Shown here: piece after piece, positions 1 through 60,881 of the stretch
How the letters are laid out: every line of letters begins with the position of its first letter
Numbering within the stretch: position 1 is the first letter of the stretch
Origin: Paracyclopina nana
Lineage: Eukaryota; Arthropoda; Copepoda; Cyclopoida; Cyclopettidae
DNA: 64,000 nt
Assembly: GCA_019096065.1 (NCBI GenBank)
Contig: JAGUCH010000006.1
Location: 1,570,001-1,634,000, forward strand
Direction: 5' to 3'
The notes under the pieces: generated by a model
What the model was told of the DNA's origin: nothing
Databases searched by the model: none
The model's input: only the letters and a program-made list of their open reading frames with translations
Position numbers and translations under genes: made by a program

Positions 1-3000
1 CTTCTTGATCCAAATCTGGATGAGAGATCTCATCCTCTGATGAACTCTCAGGAGGCCCCTTACTGCTGCCAGAGTCACCATCGTCATCACTTTGATTGGA
101 GTCCAAGTCCTTGTGCCCATCCCCTGAGTCCTTTGGGAAAGCCTAGTAACAAAAGAAAAATTATATTATGACAGAAGGATCTTGAACACAAATGCTTACT
201 TTGGTAAATGCATAGATGGGCTGCAAATTAGGGGGATTTCTGGTATCAGTTAGGGCCATCCTGACCACTTTTTTGGAGGCATACCATTCTGAACAGGTAA
301 CTGCGATAGTTTCTGCAATGACATGCCCTCCAGTTGCCATGGGCCTTGAACACACATCTGGCACATCACTTTTGGAGCTGCATCTCCAGCCATACAATGC
401 CTGGAGCTCATTTTCCAAGTGAAGCAAATTGTTGGGCTCATTTGCAAAGACCAACATAGTGTGCTTGTCAAATTTTCTGAGATAAAGGTAAGGTGAAATT
501 GGTTGAGCTTAGTCTGCTTTAGCTCCTCTTACCTTGATGCCATACTCCTGTTGGCAGAGGGAAATGTGCAATAGACCAAAAGGACACCTTGGGTTGGCCA
601 ATTCCCCATGGTGCTCTCATCCCAATCACTGGGGGCTTCAGGCATGTGTCGCACATGAAGAAGGAGGTCCTGAGGAAGCTCTTCAAGTGCATCTTGGTGC
701 TGGTTAAAGTCCTCAAATGTGCCTTCAATGGACTTTAGCTCAAGTCGCCTTGCCAAGGTTAAATAGTAATTTGCCCTTTCCAATCTGTAAGGGCCCATTG
801 CTACATAGAAAATTAGAGCATTTAGAAAAGAATGTGGTTTTAAAGCTATTATTAAGTACCTAGTTGCAGAAGGGCTCTTTTGTTGTCTTCAGGCAACTTT
901 GGGATCTTGATAGGGAAAGCATCTCTGAAGTCCTCAATTTGCTTCAAGGGGAAAGTAGTCCACTCTGTGTTGGACTTGTCAGGGCAAGTTTCAATTTCAA
1001 AACTGAAGTCTAGGCCAATGTCAAACCCATTGATCAAGTTGATCCTCTTGGTGATCAAGTCCACCATCTCAATTTGTTCAGGGTGGTTAAGGTACTTAAG
1101 CTTGAATTTAGGGTGGCCATCATTGTAGCTTGCAACTGAGCATCCATACAATACTTGAAGTTTGGGAATGTTCCCAAACTCTGGGCTCAGCCTATAAAAA
1201 GATGCTGTATAATACACACTAACAGTTGTGAAATCTAATTGTAACTAACCCAAACTTTTTGACAAATGATGATCCAAGGATTCCAATGTATTGGTGGATG
1301 AGCTGGTGGGAGAACATCTTGTCCATCTTTAAGGCAGCATGGCATTGCTCTATGCCATGCCTCAAAAAGCCCACAAAGGCTTTATGATTCTTGATCTTGA
1401 TTTCAGCTCCAAGAATGTCTTTAATTGACTCATATTGAAATTTGCCAGTTGACTCTGTAAAAGTGAAAGTTGAAGACTGAAGAGTATTAGGAGAAATAGC
1501 TTATACCATCAAATTGAATAACTTCCTCAGCATCAGCAGACACTGGGGAAATGAAGACAGCTCCAACAGATTGGCAGTACTCTTTGATGTTCACTAAACA
1601 TAAATTGATTGAATTCAGTCAATCTTAGCCTATTATGTGAATGCCTACATATTTTGTCGGTGACATTCTTGGGATAGTAGTCATAGCCCCGGTCAGCCAC
1701 AACCACCACAAAGTAATTTGAAGTGCCTTTGATCAGAGTTGATACACCACAATGAAGTTGGTCACCAGAATCAGCTCTGGTTTCATCATCTTTCAGGTGA
1801 AAGCCTGTCAACACTGAATCTCCGTGTGCTGGACTGATGGAGGCTGCAGCAGTTGTGTAAAGGATGATTGTTCCATCAGGAGTTGAAACATTGGTAAGAG
1901 TGATGTAATGGCCTGAAAAGAAGTTTATTCAAGTAAACTAACATAAAGTTAAGTTTTAAGGAAAATGTTACCTGATTTTTTGCTGAAATGTGTTGATTTT
2001 TGAATCTCTTGGTCAGTCCTCTTTTGCACATCAATCTGGAGAGGCCAAATACAGAATTACATTTGATATCTTCCATTAAATTGAAAAAATTAACCTTGGT
2101 TGAATCAAAAACACAAATGACAGCAGACCTGTCCAATCCAAATGGATCAGCAATCCTTGATGAAATCTCCATAAAGAAGGGGTCTTAAGGCAAAAGAAGG
2201 CTCATCAGCATTTTCTTTCTTTTGATTAGCATTGACTTACCAAGAGATTTTAAGACAGATTCAAAAAAGGCATTGATGTCAGCCTCAGTCAAGGTTTTTT
2301 GTGTCCACATGCGAGGAGTTTGATTGGCCAAGTCATAATGGTGTATGGCCACATACCTAAGTACCATACATAGATCATGATGACTATCACATATTTTAAG
2401 TGCAATAGTACCAAAAAGCATCATTGATGCAGGATTTTGACACCATGAAGAGGATTTCCAGCACCCTTGTGCCAAGATTGTGCCTCAGTTTCATCCTAAT
2501 TAAACTAGTTAAGAAGTCTTCTTGGGAATAATCATTATGTTGCAAGCTACCTATACAGGAGAACCAGTGATGGCAGAGTCAAGTTCCCAGGGCGCTTTGT
2601 CATTCCATGCCTGTGTAAGTCATCACAGAGCCTCCAGAAATAGCTTGCTTTGTATCCACATAGATTGAAAATCCACTCTTCTGTTAGCTTCCATGGCTCC
2701 AAGAACAGATTTGTTGAGAACAGGCATGACTTGGGATATCTGCAAATAGAAAATTGATGTTGAGTTACATATCTAATTAGTAAACAGTCAGAAAGACCAG
2801 TAATACCTATGAGGAGCAAATGGAAAACCTTGACCCTTGGAATACTTCTTGATCTCACTCAAGGAATTATCCACTTCCATTAGCTGCTCAGTTTCAAGAA
2901 GCCCCCTTTTGTGATCTACAAGAGCTACTTCATAAGCCATGGCACTTTTTTTGGTGGCCCTCAGGACTTTTCCTTTTGGTAGCAACACATCTTCTCTAGC

Positions 3001-3525
3001 CATGAAAACAAGCTTACCATCCTTATCAAAGATGTCAATGTTGGCATCAATTAGGATAGTGTTTTCTTGGCCTTTTTCCATTTTTTCAAGAAGAATCTCC
3101 TCTAGTAACTGGGTTCCTGTAGTGCAGCCAAAATCACCATGACTGGTCTGTCTCTTCCAGATTGGAGCAGACAAAGCTGGATAAATCCCAGGAAGAGCAT
3201 ACTTTCCCTCAAAACAGACAAGGTATTGCTTGAGTGGTGACAACTCCTTCACCATTTTACCAAACTCATCCATTTGATTCTTCAATGTGTAGGAAGTCAC
3301 AAGCGATTTGTCAGTCTTTTGTGCCTTGGTGCATGGATGCTTTTCATATGTGTCTTTTTGATTAAACTTTTGACCACAAACAGAGCAAGGCAAAATTGGC
3401 TTCTTGTGAGATGCACATCTCACATGCTTGGTGAAGTTCTTGTAAGCAGTTTTGCTCAAATCAAAAATTGACTCCTCTTTAGGGCACAGATGGCAGTAGC
3501 CAATGGACTGAGTTGGCTGTGGAAT
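1..3525 (-). CDS. Zinc-finger plus DDE-type (DDE_Tnp_4-like) transposase-derived protein, partial
   Basis: Thirteen exons join in one open frame on the minus strand: 3525-2807, 2739-2551, 2495-2412, 2356-2241, 2183-2095, 2035-1972, 1912-1649, 1593-1507, 1454-1250, 1191-860, 800-533, 476-200 and 142-1. Every junction is GT-AG and phase-consistent, giving about 945 residues without a stop. The first exon has Cys/His clusters (CHLCPKEE, then CSVCGQKFNQKDTYEKHPC) that look like zinc fingers. Next comes a helical recognition region (RPGNLTLPSLVLLYR, then VLEILFMVSKSCIND), as in PIF/Harbinger and IS5-type transposases. The catalytic core reads FDSTK (first Asp), FSKKSGHYITLTN, then VVVADRGYDYY (second Asp), with a candidate Glu in RHGIEQ. 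The visible tail is acidic and Ser/Asp-rich. The start lies to the right of 3525 and the stop beyond the left edge, so both ends are missing. The family call is good. Whether it is an active transposon or a host gene is open. Confidence 0.72.
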
Positions 3526-5193: not shown

Positions 5194-5718
5194 ATGGCAC
5201 TCTCCTGCAGAGTAAGTCTTGAATAAGTTACAATTTAAGCTTAAATTGCTCACACTGTTCATTTTTTAGTCGTTTATCAATGAAGTGGAAGGCCTGGCAC
5301 AAAGTTCGTACCAGTGCGGTGCAATTTGCCAAGATGGCTCCACTCTATGGGCTGGTGCCATAGAAAATGAGGCCCAGCGGCTCCTACATAATGGGCTGGT
5401 CGTTTGCTCGAGCAACATGTAAGTTCAAGCAAATCCTTCAGATGTGCCTTTATTAATTGTTATCCTCATAGGTGCAATGAGTCTCTATGTGGTAGAACCT
5501 ACACAGTCGAAATTGCCACAAGTGTGGTCTCTGCCCTTGTTTTAGTGGCAATTTTGGTGGGCCTGGTCAAGAAAATAACGGAAGTCAAAGGTTTTTTTGG
5601 TTCAATGTTTGACAAGATACGCAGGTTTTGCAGGAAGAAGGATGAGGTGAACAACAATGAGGACATTGAAAGTGCTGATGCAGTCCCCAACTCCTACCAA
5701 TTTTGTGGCATAATGTAA
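5194..5718 (+). CDS. Small single-pass membrane protein with possible CaaX tail, unknown function
   Basis: Exons 5194-5211, 5270-5418 and 5472-5718 join in phase to give 137 residues. I do not recognise the family. The N-terminal half has no clear signal peptide but carries seven cysteines (SYQCGAIC, VVCSSNMC, ESLCGRT). One hydrophobic segment follows at about residues 69-89 (IATSVVSALVLVAILVGLV). After it come a basic patch (KIRRFCRKK) and an acidic stretch. The protein ends in CGIM, which fits a CaaX prenylation box. Exon 1 codes only six residues (MALSCR). A TATA box 66 nt upstream of the ATG and an AATAAA about 60 nt after the stop support a real transcription unit. It sits between two inverted repeat arms and converges on the small minus-strand gene at 6150-6591. 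The gene structure is well supported; its function is not known. Confidence 0.62.
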
Positions 5719-6149: not shown

Positions 6150-6591
6150 TTAAATCTGGAGAATAAAATCAAAAGATCACAAAATGGTGGATGATAAAGC
6201 TGATAAGCTGATTGGGAAATCGTCGGAGTAGTCTATTTTTAGGGGTGTAAGGTGAAAATTGACTTTCAGGGCTCGCAAGTCATTACATTTCCGCAGCATT
6301 TTGTTATAAATAAGATTAACTTACCTCAGAATTTTCGTCTAGGAAGCAGTTTGCAATACTGCCTTCCTTGACAACCACAAAATTGATGAAACTGTTCCTA
6401 TTTTTTTGAACAATTTCACTCATCTGTCGAAAACTCAAGTCTCTGGTGTCCTGATTGTTGAATGAGACAAGTGTGTCACCCTTTTTGATGCTTGGTACCT
6501 GACATGATTCAATTATAACAGTGTTAGGGAACAACACTAAAACTGGCTGATTTTTAATCACTTGATAAAAAACTTCAATTACTGCAGCCAT
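6150..6591 (-). CDS. Small PDZ-like domain protein
   Basis: The main exon, 6591-6325, encodes 89 residues from an ATG (MAAVIEVFY...). It ends at a good donor (GAG|GTAAGT). An acceptor at 6156-6157 adds a final Ile and a stop (6155-6150), giving a protein of about 90 residues. The section PSIKKGDTLVSFNNQ followed by DLSFRQMSEIVQ and SFINFVVVKE matches the second half of a PDZ fold: the 'GD.l..vN' turn, the helix, then the last strand. The N-terminal carboxylate-binding loop is poorly conserved (VLVLFPN), so the peptide-binding mode is uncertain. An upstream in-frame start at 6693 would add a hydrophobic leader. The last exon is the weakest part. It is convergent with the plus-strand membrane-protein gene. 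Confidence 0.42.
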
Positions 6592-7376: not shown

Positions 7377-7526
7377 GGTTAGCCTTTCCCAAGGTCATCT
7401 GGCCTTTCCAAAGCCATTTAAAACAAAGGAGACTTTAAATGAAGGCTTCATGTGCTCAAATCATGGCCATTTCTTGTTTGCTACTTTGCCATTCAAATAA
7501 AGTAGGCTGAAATGATTATGCTATTA

Positions 7527-7817
7527 AACGCTCGTAAACAAGTACCCTTGGAAGTTCGAATTTGGAAAAAAGTCATAAATAGAAATTGTGGGGATTGCAA
7601 AATTAGGGCTCCATGCGAAAATTCAGCTTGTTTGCTTGAAGCCTCTCGGAGATATCGCCAAAATACGAAAAACGCTCATAAACAAGTACCCTTGGAAGTT
7701 GAATCTGGAAAAAAGTCATTAATAAAAGTTGTAGCCCTGGCAAAATGGGAGTCACACACAAAAATTCAGCTTATTTCGTCAATTGGGAGCGGAGAAAAAT
7801 GGAAGTCTGTCATTTGG
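7527..7817. repeat. Two tandem ~144-bp units
   Basis: AAACAAGTACCCTTGGAAGT recurs with a spacing of about 144 nt (units from ~7527 and ~7671), followed in both by TTGGAAAAAAGTCAT-like and AAAATTCAGCTT motifs. An open frame runs through both copies, but its internal duplication and lack of splice sites mark it as repeat sequence, not a gene. Confidence 0.65.
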
Positions 7818-8700
7818 CGGAAAATCAAAAAATGCCGCTAATAAAGATCATGCGCTATGGGGAGGAGAATGCACGTGCCAAATTTCAGGTCGCCTACTCA
7901 AAGTATAAGCACAGGGCTCCCAAATAATACTACTAGTTTCAATGTGGACAGCTCCTTTTGTTTCCTCAGCTTATTACAAGTAATGGCTAATTTGCTGAAA
8001 AATTGGCCATTTTTAATGAATCCACATCAGATAAACTTTTTTGTTTTGAACTCACACAGAGCAGAGCTACAAAAAGTAAGGCCATTTCTTCTGATTTGAT
8101 CCATCATGCTCAGGTCTGGATATGATGTGACTCATGATCCAAAATTCCTTGACTTTCATGAATCTTACTCAAAATGGTACCAATCTGTTCCTTGAATCAA
8201 TTGTGATGTTACAAGCTCAAAATGAGCACTTTCTTTGCCATTTTGTTCCCAACAATTCTAAAAAACGTTTTGTTTACTTTTAGTCAGAAGAGCTATTTTT
8301 TGCAATTGCTACGCTGCACTAATGAGGGAGGGGTGAAGAAGAAGTGGGAGTTGGATGAAAATGTGTTCCGATTTATTTAATAAAGATGATAACATTAAGC
8401 TATAAGGATGGCATTTATGGGTGGATAGATGCATGAGATTTGGACTGGCATACGTTGAATTTTAATGTTATAAGTGCAATGTACTGAATTTTGAAAACCT
8501 GTGTTTGACTTGGCAGCACTTCTACTAGCATACGCCAGCCGACCTCCTACTGGCAGAATAGCATGCAAAAAGTTGGATTCTAGTCTTTTTCAGCAAAACT
8601 GAGCAAGCAGAGCGTTATACTCATTCTATTAACAACTCTGGCCCCACTATCTTCGTCATAATCAGCAAAAATATTTCGTATGCCTTCGTGACTTTGGAAA
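7818..8700. other. Non-coding stretch with no gene seen
   Basis: AT-rich sequence beyond the right repeat arm. The open frames are short, without recognisable domains or convincing splice sites. I see no RNA gene. Confidence 0.4.
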
Positions 8701-11749: not shown

Positions 11750-12860
11750 GAGTTGTAATCGTGCTTTCACTTTTATTTAGCGAAAAGAATGATCTCACAA
11801 AAAAAGAAAAACGACGCTAAAACGTTGCAGACGACCAAAAATAATGAAATGTTGATGAAAAAAATCTATAACAAAATGCTCTCTTTCTTTCAATAAGCTA
11901 CTACTATACTAAAGATGTTGTGTGAATGCTAAACTGCGTGTGTGCTACATGAGGAAACGCCTTAATAATACTATTTCTCCCAAGACAAAATTGTTGAGCA
12001 ATTTCACTTAGATGATATTGTGATGATGTGTATTACGTGCAATAAATTGCCTTTGATCCTTGCAGATACAAGCGTCAATCATTGATATAAAGCTTTCAAC
12101 GCACCCACGCAAATTATTTCTATTAATTGCTGACATGATGAGTTTTCACTTTCAGGCTGTCTTGTATTTTTGGAAGATGCATTTAGGCTTTTTTCTGCTG
12201 CATCATCTGTTCTTTTTTGGGATTGCTCATCTCACTGCTAATTGTATGCAAAGTTATGGGGGAAAAGTGCTTGATCCCTCTTGAACTCCTCGTTTAGGCA
12301 AGGAAACCACACCTAGTGGAAGTTGTCAAGAATGCCATTATGACAAGAGTTTATGATACTGCATTTCTAGGCACCATGTAAACAAAACCTCTTGTATGCA
12401 CAATATTTGCTGCATGCTTTTTCGATGGAAGGCTGCCAAAAAATTAATTGAATTGTGCTCGAAAAAAAGTGCATGTAAATAGAACCATCCATCAGCGTAG
12501 CCTCGTTTTTGTAGCCATCATTAATGAACAACCAACATATTTTTTTTTTTGCCCACTTAAATCCCTTTTCTCCTGGTAGAAATTGAAATTGTTTGCACCC
12601 TTCCATCTTGCAACAAATCTGTTGGCACAGGCTCGGCCAAATAATCGCCCATATTATGAAGACTCTCTCAATAATTAGGGGTGGAGTGGATTTAAAATAC
12701 CTGTATTTTCTCCAATTTTAAGATGGCACAAAAGAGAAAAGAGGGATAAAAGATAAACGCAACGCTTAGCGAAAATGTCAATTACTCTAGTTTGCAGTTT
12801 CTTTTAACAAGACAGAGAATGTCGACGATAGTGATTTAGCACAGCGAGCAGCAAGAGTAC
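11750..12860. other. 3' UTR and intergenic, no gene seen
   Basis: A candidate AATAAA at about 12041-12046 (gcaataaattg) may end the upstream transcript. Otherwise AT-rich with no supported gene. Confidence 0.35.
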
Positions 12861-12863
12861 TAA

Positions 12864-13085
12864 GGCCCTGTTCACCTGCAATATTATCAGCAAAATAACG
12901 CGCGATATTATGCTGATATTTGCAAATATCCGGTATTTGTAAAATGATTTTTCAGATTTTGACTTCGGAATCGATATATTGGTACCAAAAGCCATCCTGC
13001 ACCAATAATAAAATTCTCAGTTTCTCAGTATTTCTCTCCAATATTTTGCCAAAATAATGGCCATAATAAGCAGGTGAACAGGCCC
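12864..13085. mobile_element. MITE, PIF/Harbinger (Tourist)-like, copy 1
   Basis: A 222-bp element with inverted ends (GGCCCTGTTCACCTGC and, read inward from the other end, GGGCCTGTTCACCTGC), bounded by TAA on both sides (12861-12863 and 13086-13088). The interior is AT-rich with no coding capacity. It is nearly identical along most of its length to 59508-59727 and shares its terminal motif with 62781-63000. Confidence 0.8.
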
Positions 13086-13089
13086 TAAA

Positions 13090-58868: not shown

Positions 58869-60881
<2,013 letters not shown>

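What the first reader, a model, noticed from the sequence alone, without database searches (positions are those of the whole stretch)
1..3525. Intact thirteen-exon transposase-derived gene
Twelve short introns and about 945 codons stay open and in phase across a zinc-finger plus DDE transposase. Random decay would be expected to break a dead transposon copy, so the frame is under selection or very young. Most PIF/Harbinger-type transposases have few introns; this many, plus an acidic Ser/Asp tail, suggests a domesticated host gene or an unusual host-like transposon family. Catalytic Asp, Asp and a candidate Glu look retained.
Basis: partly seen in the sequence, partly recalled or inferred. Interest (0 to 1): 0.72.

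Follow-up and report, generated by a model that had tools for sequence, protein, structure and literature searches.

The report
Giant jumping gene with built-in deubiquitinase
The intron-rich gene is the transposase of a 10-kb mobile DNA element in a small arthropod genome, and its protein continues past the window into a ubiquitin-removing protease domain, a combination I did not find described for animal jumping genes.

Summary
The reading frame is real: 13 exons in the window, 12 GT-AG introns of 52-67 bp, 945.3 open codons, minus strand. It is not a domesticated host gene. It lies inside a 10,058-bp element (window -2102 to 7955) with 435-bp terminal inverted repeats 98.2% identical. Its joined flanks occur uninterrupted elsewhere (2 mismatches in 220 at best): clean insertion between AAAA and TTTT without target-site duplication, the hallmark of Spy-type PHIS transposons. 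The window cuts the gene: the protein continues through an acidic linker into a C-terminal ubiquitin-specific protease (USP) domain (Pfam UCH 4e-8). The fusion recurs in three subfamilies and in a second family 29-41% identical, with elements up to 18.7 kb. Selection on the protein is purifying (omega 0.10-0.21). The element also carries a small membrane protein and a weakly supported PDZ-like protein, both conserved in relatives. Described Spy elements are at most 5.9 kb with one or two ORFs (PMC11304231). I read this as a new giant, deubiquitinase-armed lineage with Spy-like insertion. The protease's role is inferred; splicing and activity are untested.

The parts
1..3525 (-). Transposase-USP gene, part inside the window (13 exons, 12 introns); continues beyond the window's left edge to window -1122 (C6:1568878) with the USP exon; 5' exon not identified
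2807..3525 (-). Exon with zinc-finger-like Cys/His clusters
   Evidence: Pfam C2H2 models only below cut-off
2412..2739 (-). HTH-like region (two exons)
   Evidence: Pfam HTH_Tnp_4 E=0.0017, below cut-off
1250..2183 (-). DDE region: D 2106-2104, D 1694-1692, E 1351-1349
   Evidence: Pfam DDE_Tnp_4 E=0.003, below cut-off; residues invariant in A4, 3 of 3 rows, except that the assignment of the E is by eye
200..800 (-). Conserved middle domain without Pfam match
1..142 (-). Start of the acidic linker that leads to the USP domain outside the window
5194..5718 (+). Gene B: 137-aa single-pass membrane protein, exons 5194-5211, 5270-5418, 5472-5718; C-terminus CGIM
6319..6591 (-). Gene C: PDZ-like exon (91 aa shown; a donor site near its end suggests a further exon)
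   Evidence: weak Pfam and PDB support
7526..7955 (-). Right terminal inverted repeat (left repeat at C6:1567898-1568328, window -2102 to -1672)
7956..7959 (+). TTTT half of the target site AAAA|TTTT

Best explanation
The gene is the transposase of an autonomous-looking, recently inserted giant cut-and-paste DNA transposon with Spy-like insertion (PHIS superfamily). Shown: long inverted repeats, clean insertion at AAAATTTT, a coding frame under purifying selection that ends in a USP domain. Inferred: the zinc-finger/HTH part binds the repeats; the DDE part cuts the element out blunt and inserts it between AAA and TTT; the C-terminal USP removes ubiquitin from the transposase itself or from chromatin and host factors around it, so that the complex escapes degradation or silencing. 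The element also carries a membrane protein and a PDZ-like protein that may work as a pair; their role is unknown.
For: Inverted repeats 435 bp, 98.2%. Empty sites: 220-bp joined flanks match 40 scored places at 93-99%, 4 of 4 fetched ungapped. AAA left in 12 of 13 elements, TTT right in 13 of 13. HTH_Tnp_4 and DDE_Tnp_4 in collinear order, below cut-off. UCH above cut-off in E1, E14 and family 2; profile hits to USPs in the PDB; 50 of 50 listed Foldseek rows and 50 of 50 listed VIA-align rows are USPs; Cys14 and His249 invariant in 4 of 4 rows. Same architecture in family 1 (4 models) and family 2. Omega 0.10-0.21 in 6 of 6 pairs. The E1 USP exon has no ATG before the catalytic Cys in its frame.
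Against: No RNA evidence for the junctions, including the one that joins transposase and USP. Pfam support for HTH and DDE is below cut-off, and an unrelated model (RdRP_2, E=0.0037) scores as well on the same piece. A PDB profile search with the DDE region gave nothing meaningful. The AlphaFold model of the USP has mean pLDDT 53, with the Cys (1-82) and His (241-277) segments under 50. The Cys box is not canonical: the invariant Asn lies 6 residues before the Cys, where I recall 5, so activity is not certain. dS between subfamilies is near saturation. The start exon is missing.
Confidence: 0.85

Rival explanations
1. A domesticated host gene derived from a PIF/Harbinger-type transposase.
For: Open frame, many introns, purifying selection.
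Against: Bounded by 98.2% identical inverted repeats; uninterrupted target copies elsewhere; related copies, some with stops, at other loci.
Confidence: 0.02
2. The USP domain is a separate gene that travels next to the transposase and is not part of the same protein.
For: No RNA data; if the last intron is retained the transposase frame ends soon after window -167.
Against: In-frame GT-AG junctions lead into the USP in 4 of 4 family-1 models, and the family-2 prediction also joins them; the E1 USP exon lacks an ATG before the catalytic Cys; the order is the same in both families.
Confidence: 0.1
3. The USP domain is present but catalytically dead and serves only as a ubiquitin-binding or structural module.
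For: Non-canonical Cys box; low-confidence model around Cys and His.
Against: Cys and His are invariant between families at 33% identity; USP omega is low in E1/E11 (dN 0.27, dS 1.88).
Confidence: 0.2
4. The giant members are virus-like elements (transposase plus membrane glycoprotein genes) rather than plain transposons.
For: E11, E14 and E15 carry a further membrane gene D, and family 2 has other membrane-type ORFs.
Against: No Pfam match for any exon piece; no match to gene D in the window element; no relative in the viral contigs scanned by pattern. Capsid or polymerase genes were not searched for systematically.
Confidence: 0.05

Closest known systems
Spy group of the PHIS superfamily (passages read in PMC4482050 and PMC11304231)
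   Same: Insertion between AAA and TTT without target-site duplication; HTH plus DDE transposase; inverted repeats up to several hundred bp; arthropod hosts
   Different: Described Spy elements are 1.2-5.9 kb with one (or two) ORFs and a transposase of about 700 aa; here 10-18.7 kb, a gene of 14 or more exons, about 1,300 aa, a C-terminal USP domain and extra genes
ISL2EU and PIF/Harbinger groups of PHIS (passages read in PMC4482050)
   Same: Related HTH + DDE transposases; ISL2EU repeats usually start with GG
   Different: They make AT or TWA target-site duplications and carry YqaJ or Myb/SANT second proteins; none was seen here
Plant MULE and CACTA elements with ULP1 protease domains (passages read in PMC2528002)
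   Same: A transposon that carries a ubiquitin-like-modifier protease domain
   Different: ULP1 is a different protease class and the transposases are of other superfamilies
Kolobok lineages with accessory enzymes (passages read in PMC9587614)
   Same: A DDE transposase fused or paired with an accessory enzyme, lineage by lineage
   Different: The accessory enzymes are nucleases or helicases; other superfamily

Membership tests
Spy group (PHIS) | No target-site duplication; insertion between AAA and TTT | tested here: met
   12 of 13 left and 13 of 13 right flanks; 4 of 4 fetched empty sites ungapped
Spy group (PHIS) | DDE transposase that groups with Spy in a tree | not tested
   No Spy transposase sequence was at hand; the original Spy paper is not held
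Spy group (PHIS) | One ORF (one or two in PMC11304231), element up to 5.9 kb | tested here: not met
   10,058 bp with three predicted genes; relatives 13-18.7 kb. So I do not file it as an ordinary Spy element
PHIS superfamily | HTH_Tnp_4 / DDE_Tnp_4 transposase | tested here: inconclusive
   E=0.0017 and 0.003, below cut-off; E=0.06 and 0.016 for E11, HTH 0.001 for family 2
USP deubiquitinases (peptidase C19) | UCH domain by profile and fold | tested here: met
   Pfam above cut-off; PDB profile hits; fold rows all USPs though the model is of low confidence
USP deubiquitinases (peptidase C19) | Catalytic Cys and His retained | tested here: met
   C14 and H249 invariant in 4 of 4 rows; the third residue reads N in 3 rows and D in 1
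USP deubiquitinases (peptidase C19) | Cleaves ubiquitin | not testable with these tools
   Needs a biochemical assay
Domesticated transposase gene | Immobile, no inverted repeats, fixed locus | tested here: not met
   Inverted repeats and empty sites; fixation across species not tested
PDZ domain proteins (gene C) | PDZ profile or fold | tested here: inconclusive
   PDZ_6 E=0.05 below cut-off; 3 of 4 PDB profile hits are PDZ domains at E 0.54-0.86; model pLDDT 53

The most novel reading that the evidence does not exclude
A separate lineage of giant animal cut-and-paste transposons that carries its own deubiquitinase in cis to overcome host control of the transposase, plus a membrane module (a small membrane protein with a conserved CGIM end, a PDZ-like partner, and in larger members a second membrane protein) that does a second job outside the nucleus, possibly spread between cells or individuals.
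Probability: 0.12. Interest if true: 0.9.

Novelty: new variant of a known kind. Interest (0 to 1): 0.62.

Why it matters
It would be a eukaryotic DNA transposase that brings its own deubiquitinase, which makes it directly testable whether hosts restrain transposons through ubiquitin-dependent turnover of transposase. It also shows that elements with Spy-like insertion can reach 10-19 kb and keep extra membrane and PDZ-like genes. An active Spy element is already proposed as a gene-transfer tool (PMC11304231), so a larger natural relative with a possible stability domain is of practical interest too.

Tried and rejected
Domestication was rejected (inverted repeats, empty sites). The idea that gene D of the larger elements is a baculovirus-F-like fusion protein came from a motif that I recalled; no exon piece had a Pfam match, so it is only a lead. 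A PDB profile search with the DDE region gave no meaningful hit. The PDZ model was of low confidence (mean pLDDT 53) and was not searched. A pattern-based scan of viral contigs found no relative. A USPL1-like origin of the Cys box was a recollection; the PDB profile hits were ordinary USPs. The 5' exon of the transposase was not found: upstream predictions differ between copies. A CGIM-stop at window 9190 minus looks like a chance ORF, and so does a short one in L021. Automatic splice predictions such as E1 minus and E15 plus and the 41-exon prediction are not credible as whole genes and were not used as such.

Full report
Observation. The window is C6:1570001-1634000 of an unnamed 92-Mb, 10-contig genome. 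The host is an arthropod by inference: 80 matches to the cuticle domain Chitin_bind_4 and 12 to Wnt, with 0 of 14 control genomes ringing for either. The window truncates the gene. It runs on to window -1122 with a 14th exon. An exon with the start codon upstream of 3525 was not identified; predictions there differ between copies.

It is a transposon. A 616-bp piece from left of the window matches window 7526-7959 inverted, 98.2% over 435 bp. Counted from the first G to the last C the element is 10,058 bp, window -2102 to 7955, flanked by AAAA and TTTT. The joined flanks (220 bp) matched 40 scored places (of 179 candidates) at 93-99%, at or very near full length. The 4 that I fetched align without gaps, with 2, 7, 8 and 10 mismatches; 3 of them read AAAATTTT at the junction and 1 AAAATTCT. 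The element therefore inserted into a dispersed repeat, precisely and without a target-site duplication. The repeat probe found 43 matches in the genome, a lower bound (40 of 286 candidates scored). I paired 13 intervals by eye. For the flank table I left out the two short ones (E12, E13, about 1 kb) and added E14 and E15: AAA on the left in 12 of 13 (the miss is E7), TTT on the right in 13 of 13. Window triplet frequencies are 0.034 and 0.038.

Relatives. Long relatives with paired repeats lie at C3 (E11, 13.35 kb, repeats 99.0%), C6 (E14, 14.5 kb, 95%) and C2 (E15, 16.0 kb, 96%). A copy at C1 (E2) carries two stops in its USP part; one at C2 (the L010 locus) lacks the end of the USP and shows further stops, some of which may be introns read through. 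E14 and E15 are 98.6% identical over 5 kb around the transposase but about 80-89% in several other pieces, a mosaic. Transposase proteins are 60-65% identical between E1, E11 and E14/E15. Nei-Gojobori estimates (my script, 4 sequences, 6 pairs): E14/E15 dS 0.032, dN 0.007, omega 0.21; E1/E11 dS 1.94, dN 0.26, omega 0.13; the other four pairs 0.10-0.14 with dS of 2.0-3.1, i.e. near saturation. E1 and E11 share the 14-exon structure; E14 and E15 lack one intron.

Second family. Searches of the genome with the middle domain and the USP (15 and 24 matches) found a second family: four similar copies with a USP frame free of stops (C1:9905261, C1:13040004, C8:5800974, C9:837145; 32-33% identical to family 1) and a fifth at C1:1305468. 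By repeat coordinates two elements, C1:13037545-13056117 and C8:5785513-5804254, are 18.6 and 18.7 kb; these two are 97.8% and 99.7% identical in the pieces compared. The end that I read in both is GCCCC|TTTT; the other ends and about 2.6 kb of the C1 element were not read. Its transposase is collinear with family 1 over zinc finger, HTH, DDE, middle and USP parts at 29-41% identity. The simplest reading is that the fusion predates the split of the families. Several shorter USP fragments lie within repeat-paired intervals too.

Cargo. The window element encodes a 137-aa single-pass membrane protein (gene B, 5194-5718 +) and a PDZ-like exon (gene C, 6591-6319 -). A protein search for gene C found 4 places in the genome: E1, E11, E14 and E15. 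Gene B found the same four plus its C-terminal part in E7 and E8. Where the last exon could be read (E1, E11 and the similar pair E7, E8) gene B ends in CGIM; in E14 and E15 no such end was found in the stretches searched. CGIM could be a prenylation (CaaX) signal or a PDZ ligand; both are guesses. The PDZ assignment is weak (Pfam E=0.05; 3 of 4 PDB profile hits are PDZ domains at E 0.54-0.86). E11, E14 and E15 carry a further membrane gene D, for which no match was found in the window element and whose pieces have no Pfam match.

How it works. Shown: repeats, clean AAA/TTT insertion, a conserved transposase-USP coding sequence under purifying selection. Inferred: end binding, blunt cleavage, one spliced protein, and that the USP protects the transposase or its chromatin site from ubiquitin-dependent control. 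Precedent in kind: ULP1 domains in plant MULE and CACTA elements (passages read in PMC2528002).

Literature. Passages read: PMC4482050 (PHIS groups, Spy without TSDs and with one transposase), PMC11304231 (Spy 1,165-5,910 bp, AAA/TTT, repeats 5-691 bp, arthropods, cnidarians, molluscs), PMC6431247, PMC9587614, PMC12730594, PMC2528002. I saw no title or abstract start that describes a USP fused to a transposase among the rows listed: 15 of 161, 12 of 42 (24), 5 of 5 (65), 15 of 74 (66), 12 of 189 (69), 8 of 8 (93), 4 of 4 (94). The library holds open-licence papers only and the original Spy paper is not held, so absence from print is not established.

Noticed in passing
window 12858-13086 and 59510-59733; L009 2503-2736 (window about -1497 to -1264): A ~230-bp MITE-like repeat with 21-nt inverted ends (90% complementary in L009) is nested between the left repeat and the USP exon of the window element and has two more copies, about 92% identical, in the window.
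   Followed up: no
window 7956-8065 and C6:1567788-1567897: The window element sits inside another dispersed repeat (179 candidates, 40 scored at 93-99%) whose identity I did not determine.
   Followed up: partly
L011/L016, L012/L029, L013/L030: The larger elements E11, E14 and E15 carry an extra membrane-protein gene (gene D) on the strand opposite to the transposase; no Pfam match for its pieces.
   Followed up: partly
window 5704-5718; L011 9575; L022 4685; L023 4644: The small membrane protein keeps the C-terminal residues CGIM although the rest of its tail has diverged.
   Followed up: partly
L012 1843-6925 versus L013 8648-3566: Mosaic pair: the transposase half is 98.6% identical between E14 and E15 while several other pieces are about 80-89%, as if modules had been exchanged.
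   Followed up: no
L012 8000-8824; L040 7430-8600: Tandem repeats inside the elements: a 60-bp unit array in E14 and tandem-looking repeats in family 2.
   Followed up: no
L018-L025: Pairs of 4-6 kb elements with 90-99% identical inverted repeats (E3/E4, E5/E6, E7/E8, E9/E10) gave no match to the transposase probes; probably non-autonomous, content mostly not annotated.
   Followed up: partly
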